Source: Alphaproteobacteria bacterium | Lineage (GTDB): Bacteria > Pseudomonadota > Alphaproteobacteria > DSM-16000 > Inquilinaceae | Length of the DNA: 34,967 bases | NCBI GenBank assembly: GCA_028281265.1 | Contig: JANQKE010000074.1 | Coordinates: 1 to 34,967 of the forward strand | Reading direction: 5' to 3' | Shown here: positions 1-1,585 of the stretch, one piece after another | Layout of the letters: each line of letters begins with the position of its first letter | Position numbering within the stretch: the first letter of the stretch is position 1 | Translations under genes and position numbers: made by a program | Notes under the pieces: model-generated | What the model was told of the DNA's origin: nothing | The model's input: only the letters and a program-made list of their open reading frames with translations | Databases searched by the model: none

Positions 1-2
1 AC

Positions 3-99
3 CTGCGTTCAGATGGACTCATCTGAACGCAGATAAGTTGATCTATTTCAAAGATTTAGAGCATCTTATCTGCGTCCGTTAGGACGCAGGATGCTCTAA
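3..99. repeat. Paired palindromes with a competing third stem, upstream of the first aldehyde dehydrogenase gene
   Basis: Bases 3-15 (CTGCGTTCAGATG) and 20-32 form a perfect 13-bp inverted repeat around the loop GACT. A second structure pairs 56-65 (TTAGAGCATC) with 90-99, and 70-77 (CTGCGTCC) with 82-89, around the loop GTTA, with a four-base bulge at 66-69. Bases 27-37 (ACGCAGATAAG) are also a perfect complement of 65-75, so a third stem competes with both hairpins. GAGCAT...ATGCTC palindromes are familiar dispersed repeats in alphaproteobacteria; whether this one acts in RNA is inference. It ends 28 bases before the ATG at 128. Confidence 0.8.
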
Positions 100-127
100 C
101 CGATCTAACCACCCCAGGGAGCGAGAG

Positions 128-1585
128 ATGAACATCCAGACCAAGATGGCCCACGGCATCCGGGTCGACTTCGACGGGCCCTATACCATGTCGATCGACG
201 GCGAACCGGTCGGCTCCAACGACACGTTCGAGGTCTACAACCCCGCAACCGACGAGGTCGTCGCCAACGCACCGTCCGCCACGCGCGAACAGGTCGAACA
301 CGCGGTTGCCGCCGCCAAGGCCGCGCAGCCGGCCTGGGCGGCCCTGAGCTGGGAGGAGCGGTCCGCCTACGTCACCGCCTATGCCGACGCCCTCGACGCC
401 CACAAGCAGGAGATCATCACCCTTCTGACCACCGAGCAGGGCAAGCCGCGCCATTCCATGGCGACGGTGGAGGTCGACTACGCGATCTACTGGGTCCGCG
501 AGGTGGCCAAGCGCCGGCTCGAAGACGAGGTCATCGAGGACACGCCGCAGCACGTCGTCAAGGTCGCCCACACCCCGCTGGGCGTGGTCGGCGCCATCAC
601 GCCGTGGAACTTCCCGATCCTGCTGGGTCTGTGGAAGATCGCGCCCTGCCTGATCACGGGCAACACCATGGTGATGAAGCCCTCGCCCTACACGCCGCTG
701 GGCACGCTGCGCTTCGGCGAGATCGCCCAGACGGTGCTGCCCAAGGGGGTGCTCAACATCGTGTCCGGCGGCAACGATCAGGGCCGGTGGCTGACCGAGC
801 ATCCGGACGTCTCGAAGATCTCGTTCACGGGCTCGACGGCGACCGGCAAGAAGGTGATGGCGGCGTCGAGCGCGAATCTCAAGCGGCTCACGCTGGAGCT
901 GGGCGGTAACGACCCCGCGATCGTTCTGCCGGGCACCGACTACGAGCCGCTGATCCCCACGCTGTTCGACGCCGCCTACGGCAATTCCGGTCAGTGGTGC
1001 ATCGCCATCAAGCGGCTATACGTGCATGACAGTCTTTATGACGACTTCCTTGAGGACTTCGTCGCCTACGCCGCCGAGAAGACGGTCGGCAACGGCATGG
1101 ACCCCAACACCGATCTGGGGCCGATCCAGAACAAGATGCAGTTCGGCAAGCTCAAGAGCCTGTTTGCCGATGTCAGGGAGAAGGGCTATTCGGTCCCGCT
1201 GGGCGGCGAGATCGACGAGGATCGGCCGGGCAACTTCGTGCCCATCACCGTGGTCGACAACCCGCCCAAGGATAGCCGGGTCGTCCGCGAGGAACCGTTC
1301 GGCCCGATCCTGCCGATCGTCCGCTGGACCGATCTTGGGGAGGTCATCGACGACGCCAACGACACCGAGTTCGGCCTGGCCGCATCGGTCTGGGGACCGG
1401 ACCGCGACGCGGCGATCGAGGTCGCCAATCGGATCGAGGCGGGGACGGTCTGGGTCAACGAGATCCACATCCACGGCATCGACATCCCCTTCGGCGGTCA
1501 CAAGCAGTCGGGCATGGGTGTGGAGAACGGCCGCGAGGGTCTGGAAGAGTTCACCAACACCAAGACCTATATGTTCGCGAAGTAA
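128..1585 (+). CDS. NAD(P)-dependent aldehyde dehydrogenase (ALDH superfamily)
   Basis: This 485-residue protein is a full-length cytoplasmic aldehyde dehydrogenase that would oxidise an aldehyde to its acid with NAD(P)+. The Rossmann segment carries TPWNFP (158-163) and the FTGS motif (243-246). The general base lies in LELGG (Glu257) and the catalytic nucleophile is Cys291 in GQWC, where the residue before Cys is Trp rather than the commoner Thr or Val. The EEPFGP motif and the C-terminal FGG-K-SG motif are present. The ATG at 128 follows an AGGGA ribosome site at 116-120 with a seven-base spacer. It stands alone, with a terminator-like hairpin after it. The substrate is unknown; the neighbours suggest a short-chain aldehyde on the way to a dicarboxylate. 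Confidence 0.93.
   Translation: MNIQTKMAHGIRVDFDGPYTMSIDGEPVGSNDTFEVYNPATDEVVANAPSATREQVEHAVAAAKAAQPAWAALSWEERSAYVTAYADALDAHKQEIITLLTTEQGKPRHSMATVEVDYAIYWVREVAKRRLEDEVIEDTPQHVVKVAHTPLGVVGAITPWNFPILLGLWKIAPCLITGNTMVMKPSPYTPLGTLRFGEIAQTVLPKGVLNIVSGGNDQGRWLTEHPDVSKISFTGSTATGKKVMAASSANLKRLTLELGGNDPAIVLPGTDYEPLIPTLFDAAYGNSGQWCIAIKRLYVHDSLYDDFLEDFVAYAAEKTVGNGMDPNTDLGPIQNKMQFGKLKSLFADVREKGYSVPLGGEIDEDRPGNFVPITVVDNPPKDSRVVREEPFGPILPIVRWTDLGEVIDDANDTEFGLAASVWGPDRDAAIEVANRIEAGTVWVNEIHIHGIDIPFGGHKQSGMGVENGREGLEEFTNTKTYMFAK

What the first reader, a model, noticed from the sequence alone, without database searches (positions are those of the whole stretch)
3..99. Leader element with two hairpins and a mutually exclusive third stem
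Two strong palindromes (13-bp arms; 10+8-bp arms) are joined by a perfect 11-bp complement (27-37 with 65-75) that can form only if both hairpins open. The third stem re-uses the inside strand of each. This could be an RNA switch ahead of the aldehyde dehydrogenase, or a mobile palindromic repeat made of two related modules (both contain a CTGCGT core). The first reading is inference; the pairings are seen.
Basis: partly seen in the sequence, partly recalled or inferred. Interest (0 to 1): 0.5.

Follow-up and report, generated by a model that had tools for sequence, protein, structure and literature searches.

The report
Mobile double-hairpin repeat, not a switch
The two hairpins at the start of the window are a cut-off copy of a small jumping DNA repeat, present in roughly a hundred or more places in this bacterium and in relatives across the Alphaproteobacteria, rather than an RNA switch for the aldehyde dehydrogenase gene.

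Summary
The pairings are real but belong to a truncated copy of a dispersed repeat, mostly 103 or 107 nt. The contig starts inside it, so 8 nt of the left arm are missing. The own genome gives 123 core matches and none for the reversed control; some are one place seen at two contig ends. The hairpins covary; the third stem does so no more than slid controls and is complete in 25 of 70 copies. It exists because the hairpins are inverted versions of one module. Copies face either way relative to genes (16 with, 16 against). Size, two arms plus linker, GANTC in one loop (56 of 70 copies), TA ends and intergenic location match CIR elements (Caulobacter CcrM-associated intergenic repeats) as reviewed in PMC2229807. 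Related elements occur across the class, including Sinorhizobium pSymB. There, filled and empty sites between S. meliloti strains show insertion at a TA that is duplicated; a second site fits. This is a new member of a known kind. The added value is direct evidence for how relatives insert, left open in the 2007 review. The transposase is unidentified.

The parts
1..96 (+). CIR-type double-hairpin element, left 8 nt (CTAGATCA) missing because the contig starts here; strand = orientation with the TAGATC-type hairpin first
   Evidence: 100% identical over 94-97 nt to a number of other copies of the own genome; complete copies
3..32 (+). Hairpin 1 inner stem, 13-bp arms 3-15/20-32
   Evidence: 7 of 13 pairs show changes on both sides among 70 copies
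16..20 (+). GACTC = GANTC in the exposed loop of hairpin 1 (last C is the first base of the 3' arm)
   Evidence: GANTC in 56 of 70 copies, the N position the most variable of the loop
33..36 (+). ATAA bulge on the linker side of hairpin 1
37..45 (+). Surviving 3' outer arm of hairpin 1 (GTTGATCTA); its partner TAGATCAAC is mostly lost at the contig edge
46..55 (+). Linker between the hairpins
56..99 (+). Hairpin 2: outer arms 56-65/90-99, TTAT bulge 66-69, inner arms 70-77/82-89
   Evidence: bulge absent in 29 of 70 copies
97..98 (+). TA, right copy of the inferred duplicated target (target here YTAA)
   Evidence: inferred from the S. meliloti filled/empty site and the right-flank census
128..1585 (+). 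Aldehyde dehydrogenase gene (PF00171) that starts 29 nt after the TA

Best explanation
The feature is one copy of a small non-autonomous mobile element of the CIR type. It has two bulged hairpins in inverted orientation joined by a ~10-nt linker, with a CcrM-type site (GANTC) exposed in one loop. Shown: it is highly repeated in the own genome; the hairpins, not the third stem, are maintained; the examined copies lie mostly between genes and in both orientations; and a related element in Sinorhizobium meliloti sits at a target TA that was duplicated. Inferred: the same insertion chemistry applies to the window's copy, and a transposase acting in trans that duplicates TA in a YTAR target (as IS711 appears to do, or an IS630-type enzyme) moves it after recognising the inverted ends. 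It probably has no specific role in regulating the aldehyde dehydrogenase.
For: Copies: 123 matches to a 34-nt core with up to 3 mismatches, 0 to the reversed control. Architecture: 70 aligned copies. Covariation: hairpins have 16 of 39 pairs and 25 cells with changes on both sides against 3.4 and 3.6 in shuffles and 5-10 and 5-14 in slid controls; third stem 3 of 11 pairs and 4 cells, slid controls 2-5 and 2-6. Insertion: S. meliloti 1021 and B401 are filled while Rm41, M270 and Sinorhizobium M103 are empty at one site, with the empty ...ACTCTAAGG becoming ...ACTC-TA-[G...C]-TA-AGG. A second site has a single CTAG when empty in S. kummerowiae and strain K101. Own family: left ends CTAG in 81 of 93; right ends CTAG in 71 and CTAA in 9 of 96. 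Among the 43 near-consensus copies (1.1% internal divergence), 40 have TA at the right end, followed by G in 35 and A in 5, as expected for a host base in a YTAR target. 26 of 149 TAG-bearing ends (169 ends examined) serve as the stop codon of a neighbouring frame, against 3 of 298 control frames. Spread, own genome included: 24 of 385 genomes of the class; 21 of 398 of a phylum sample, all same class.
Against: No autonomous partner was found. Y1/RAYT is absent from the own genome, IS630 is represented only by two fragments at contig starts, and the ends of the three IS5-type loci were read by eye only. The empty sites are in Sinorhizobium, where GANTC is missing from the loops of the copies looked at, not in the own genome. 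The third stem does exceed column shuffles (pairs 15 of 500, cells 5 of 500 shuffles as high), though relatedness alone can do that. Four of 96 right ends read GATGCTCTCTAG, two bases longer than the rule. At two further loci the comparison was not clean (L181; and R. johnstonii L182, where the presumed empty site reads TCTGAG). The CIR1-4 sequences could not be compared, because the original paper is not held.
Confidence: 0.85

Rival explanations
1. A cis-acting RNA switch in the leader of the aldehyde dehydrogenase gene, toggling between two hairpins and the 11-bp third stem.
For: The pairings exist, and the copy lies 29 nt upstream of the ATG; the third stem exceeds column shuffles.
Against: 123 core matches in the genome; of 54 examined copies between two called genes, 16 face with and 16 against codirectional transcription and 19 lie between convergent genes; the third stem is complete in 25 of 70 copies and does not exceed slid controls; the forced third stem is 9.5 kcal/mol worse; no Rfam match at gathering score.
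Confidence: 0.03
2. A REPIN: two inverted REPs (tetranucleotide plus bulged hairpin) moved by a RAYT tyrosine transposase as single-stranded DNA.
For: Two inverted bulged hairpins with an outer tetranucleotide CTAG and high copy number.
Against: No Y1_Tnp in the own genome, while the control search rings in E. coli; found in only 6 of 15 carrier genomes; the S. meliloti site shows a TA duplication with a CTAA target, so the outer tetranucleotide is partly host sequence.
Confidence: 0.06
3. Domesticated element: a formerly mobile repeat now kept for a cellular task such as transcription termination or mRNA 3'-end protection between convergent genes, or CcrM-linked regulation.
For: Convergent 19 against divergent 3; compensatory changes in the hairpins; GANTC kept in 56 of 70 loops although GANTC is about 7-fold depleted in the window.
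Against: Avoidance of promoters and of coding DNA alone would give the same placement; compensatory changes can arise by palindrome correction at the DNA level; the scan of window 1-300 found no T-tailed terminator.
Confidence: 0.15

Closest known systems
CIR, Caulobacter CcrM-associated intergenic repeats (Chen and Shapiro 2003, not held; seen through passages and one section of the review PMC2229807, and passages of PMC10969869)
   Same: About 110 bp, two long inverted-repeat arms joined by a linker, GANTC at a terminal loop of one arm, TA at the termini, intergenic, abundant in Alphaproteobacteria.
RIME1, Rhizobium-specific intergenic mosaic element (Osteras 1995, not held; the element's name appears in passages of PMC2245857, the paper is cited in PMC2873474; its two palindromes and size are recalled)
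   Same: The model finds 14 matches in S. meliloti pSymB and 2 in R. johnstonii pRL12; those read show the same two-hairpin plan.
   Different: That those matches are RIME1 is my inference; the six rhizobial copies laid out lack GANTC in the hairpin-1 loop.
Bru-RS1 and Bru-RS2 of Brucella (passages of PMC2267715, PMC2266754, PMC10800456)
   Same: 103-106 bp palindromic repeats; reported as possible hot spots for IS711, which appears to duplicate TA in YTAR, the same kind of target seen here.
   Different: Brucella sequences were not compared.
RUP (S. pneumoniae) and Correia/NEMIS (Neisseria) miniature elements (passages of PMC2229807 and PMC2267715)
   Same: About 107-108 bp (a longer Correia form is about 155 bp), TA at the ends or target, non-autonomous.
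   Different: The review describes other families as one stem formed by pairing of the two ends, without arms and linker; RUP has an IS630 with similar ends, none was found here.

Membership tests
CIR | Length about 110 bp | tested here: met
   70 complete copies of 103-112 nt, 28 of 103 and 33 of 107
CIR | Two inverted-repeat arms joined by a linker | tested here: met
CIR | GANTC at or in the terminal loop of one arm | tested here: met
   56 of 70 copies, and the window's own GACTC at 16-20
CIR | TA at the termini | tested here: met
   CTAG at 81 of 93 left ends, CTAG or CTAA at 80 of 96 right ends
CIR | Intergenic | tested here: met
   57 of 61 interior copies do not overlap a called gene; home-made gene caller, 50 copies of G000 and 11 of G003
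CIR | Sequence relationship to CIR1-CIR4 of Caulobacter | not testable with these tools
RIME1 / Bru-RS | Sequence relationship to the published elements | tested here: inconclusive
   Structure model matches S. meliloti pSymB and R. johnstonii pRL12, but nothing I saw labels these places as RIME1; Brucella not tested
MITE with TA duplication (RUP, Correia type) | TA target duplicated on insertion | tested here: met
   Shown for one site of a Sinorhizobium relative, compatible at a second, indirect for the own genome
MITE with TA duplication (RUP, Correia type) | Ends shared with an autonomous insertion sequence | tested here: inconclusive
   Two IS630 fragments at contig starts, three IS5-type loci, no clear match of ends by eye
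REPIN / RAYT | RAYT (Y1_Tnp) in the genome | tested here: not met
   0 matches in G000 (99.4% complete) with working controls
Riboswitch or other Rfam RNA | Match to a described RNA family; one orientation to the gene | tested here: not met
   No Rfam match at gathering score; both orientations

The most novel reading that the evidence does not exclude
CIR, RIME and Bru-RS type repeats are one class-wide superfamily of TA-duplicating mobile elements with two inverted bulged-hairpin modules. The exposed GANTC, kept in the loop of this lineage while the site is depleted about 7-fold in the window, ties their movement or extrusion to the brief hemimethylated state after replication through CcrM, much as Dam sites time some insertion sequences (the Dam comparison is recalled).
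Probability: 0.15. Interest if true: 0.65.

Novelty: new member of a known kind. Interest (0 to 1): 0.33.

Why it matters
It removes a false RNA-switch candidate and names the repeat. It also gives something that the 2007 review (as far as I read it) marks as unknown for this kind of element: filled and empty sites between strains of one species, showing insertion at a TA that is duplicated. That makes the search for the responsible transposase concrete. The element also often re-creates the TAG stop codon of the gene next to it (26 of 149 ends), which may help to explain how the genome tolerates so many copies.

Tried and rejected
RNA switch: rejected on copy number, orientation and third-stem counts. 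REPIN/RAYT: rejected for lack of Y1_Tnp in the own genome (9 of 15 carrier genomes lack it). IS630 as partner: two fragments only. L119 ends ...AACGCTCTAG, which shares GCTCTAG with the element's right end and ACGCTCTAG with the second repeat family, but this is too short to count. IS5-type as partner: three loci, ends compared by eye and unlike the element's; one (L202) appears to have landed beside half of a diverged copy. DNA similarity searches of plasmids with the window's element, and with eight class-level elements, found nothing, so the rhizobial link rests on the structure model. Empty-site comparisons that were not clean: the L181 locus (the relatives carry a short hairpin of their own) and the R. 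johnstonii L182 locus, and L186 in strain Ak57, which has its own copy, cut on the right. Searches around L188 and L184 were not followed to junctions. Promoter and terminator scan of window 1-300 negative. Two plasmid records that I asked for by recalled accession, meant as Caulobacter and Ochrobactrum, were not found.

Rows dropped: two of 72 complete copies (L002, L017) were left out of the alignment because their right end is cut by the contig. Some copies at contig ends may be the same genomic place seen twice (for example L069 and L082 share a left flank). The 61 copies include tandem neighbours. The class and phylum searches used stricter filters and scored at most 9-10 candidates per genome, so their counts are lower bounds. 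The phylum listing does not tell how many of its 398 genomes belong to other classes. The 38 relatives are a hand-picked part of the loci fetched. G003 and G006 are equated with the MAGs IP29b_bin.98 and PL24a_bin.70 by equal contig lengths.

Full report
Observation. The stretch folds far better than shuffled sequence on either strand (z -10.7 and -8.5). The two hairpins win over the third stem by 9.5 kcal/mol.

What it is. Searching the genome of the window (G000, 4.33 Mb, 232 contigs; the window is contig C35 from its first base) gives 123 places for the 34-nt core with up to 3 mismatches, 55 forward and 68 reverse, and none for the reversed control. A structure model built here from 70 copies reports 150 matches at E <= 0.01, the number of candidates that were scored. 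At least 31 of the own-genome matches listed there begin at base 1 of a contig, as the window does, so assembly breaks count some places twice and the true number of places is lower; roughly a hundred or more is my estimate. Complete copies read CTAGATCAAC...GATGCTCTAG and are 103-112 nt, mostly 103 or 107. The window's copy therefore lacks 8 nt of its left outer arm.

Anatomy. Each half is a hairpin with a 9-bp outer stem (TAGATCAAC/GTTGATCTA and TAGAGCATC/GATGCTCTA), a 4-nt bulge on the side facing the linker (ATAA in hairpin 1, TTAT in hairpin 2), and an inner stem that begins CTGCG. The outer flanks are complementary too. The bulges come and go: hairpin 2 lacks its bulge in 29 of 70 copies, and a few copies have an extra TTAT or ATAA in the opposite arm. 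The third stem has all 11 pairs in 25 of 70 copies, 9-10 in 11, and 8 or fewer in 34.

Covariation. With the two hairpins as structure, 16 of 39 pairs show changes on both sides (25 cells; shuffles 3.4 and 3.6; slid controls 5-10 and 5-14). The third stem gives 3 of 11 pairs and 4 cells. That is above column shuffles (15 of 500 and 5 of 500 as high) but not above its slid controls, 2-5 and 2-6. The alignment was made by sequence, not fitted to the structure. Copies are related, so these counts are not independent events. DNA-level correction of palindromes could also produce them.

Gene context. For 61 interior copies (50 of G000, 11 of G003), some of them tandem neighbours, a simple codon-based gene caller of my own places 54 between two called genes: 19 convergent, 16 codirectional with the element, 16 codirectional against it, 3 divergent; 4 overlap a called gene and 3 lack a called neighbour. 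There is no orientation preference. Of 169 ends examined, 149 carry TAG, and in 26 of these the TAG closes a coding frame, against 3 of 298 shifted-frame controls. The aldehyde dehydrogenase (PF00171) starts 29 nt after the TA. No match at E <= 1e-100 exists in the 16 other genomes of the order, so a conserved context could not be tested.

Relatives. At E <= 0.01 the model finds the same plan in 8 of 17 genomes of the order, and at E <= 0.001 in 24 of 385 of the class and 21 of 398 of a phylum sample, every hit in the same class; each count includes the own genome. In 38 relatives laid out in one orientation (a selection) the left end is CTAG in 29 and the right end CTAG in 20. In named records the model finds 14 matches in Sinorhizobium meliloti pSymB and 2 in Rhizobium johnstonii pRL12, and none in pSymA, pMLa or the Ruegeria pomeroyi megaplasmid at E <= 0.05, with strict filters.

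Movement. At pSymB 402117-402235 the element is present in S. meliloti 1021 and B401 and absent in Rm41, M270 and Sinorhizobium M103. The empty site reads ACTCTAAGG and the filled site ACTC-TA-G...C-TA-AGG, so the TA is duplicated, the G and C belong to the element, and the target was CTAA. At pSymB 1025544-1025660 the empty site in S. kummerowiae and strain K101 has one CTAG and the filled site has CTAG at both ends, 10 nt before an ATG; a DUF421 gene is annotated under the match in some strains. Which state is older was not determined at either site. Other loci were less clean (L181 and L182). In the own family the same rule is visible indirectly: of 43 near-consensus copies, 40 have TA at the right end, followed by G in 35 and A in 5, while internal divergence is 1.1%, and some tandem copies share one CTAG. 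Direct proof for the own species is lacking.

Known family. The review PMC2229807 (passages and one section read) describes CIR elements: about 110 bp, two inverted-repeat arms joined by a linker, GANTC at the terminal loop of one arm, TA at the ends, intergenic, in Caulobacter, Brucella and other Alphaproteobacteria, with target duplication marked unknown and the mechanism of mobility open. The window's element meets each of the features that I could test: the loop is GACTC, GANTC is present in 56 of 70 copies, and the N position is the one that varies most. GANTC is otherwise the most depleted of 16 comparable motifs in the window (24 found, 172 expected by a first-order model). A 2024 review (PMC10969869, passages) still cites CIR as strictly intergenic. 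Three searches for later work on CIR, RIME or Bru-RS mobility listed 3, 1 and 0 papers, and the passages that I saw do not treat the insertion mechanism; the held library lacks most subscription papers.

Mechanism. Shown: repeat, architecture, orientation independence, and TA-type insertion of a Sinorhizobium relative. Inferred: the same insertion in the own genome by a transposase acting in trans with YTAR preference. IS711 of Brucella, which appears to duplicate TA in YTAR and is associated with Bru-RS repeats (PMC2266754, passages), is the closest analogue of target choice. Not found: the enzyme.

Verdict. This is a new member of a known kind. The switch reading is rejected, and the repeat reading is accepted and named.

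Noticed in passing
L117:1-170, L114:3151-3330, also next to copies in L052, L065, L100, L107: A second CTAG-ended palindromic repeat family of about 170 bp (CTAGAGCGTTTTCAGGGA ... TCCCTGAAAACGCTCTAG) in the same genome; CIR-type copies abut it and share its CTAG.
   Followed up: partly
L202:1200-1900: An IS5-type transposase gene ends at a GGATGGACTC that is followed by half of a diverged copy of the element, as if the insertion sequence had landed in the hairpin loop.
   Followed up: no
L119:1-210, L120:1-240: IS630-type transposase fragments at the first bases of two contigs; the first ends ...AACGCTCTAG, similar to the ends of the 170-bp repeat.
   Followed up: no
window 102-34967: GANTC is about 7-fold below expectation (24 against 172) and CTAG about 5-fold (7 against 33), consistent with a CcrM-methylating genome; the methyltransferase gene was not looked for.
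   Followed up: partly
L181:1501-1607, L183:1501-1607: A S. meliloti pSymB variant with CTAC...GTAG ends instead of CTAG but the same two-hairpin plan.
   Followed up: no
L174 (JANQKQ010000012.1): A 3.7-kb contig binned as a Rhizobiaceae MAG carries a match to the element's core pattern near its end, next to MAGs of similar sample names; possibly a binning error.
   Followed up: no
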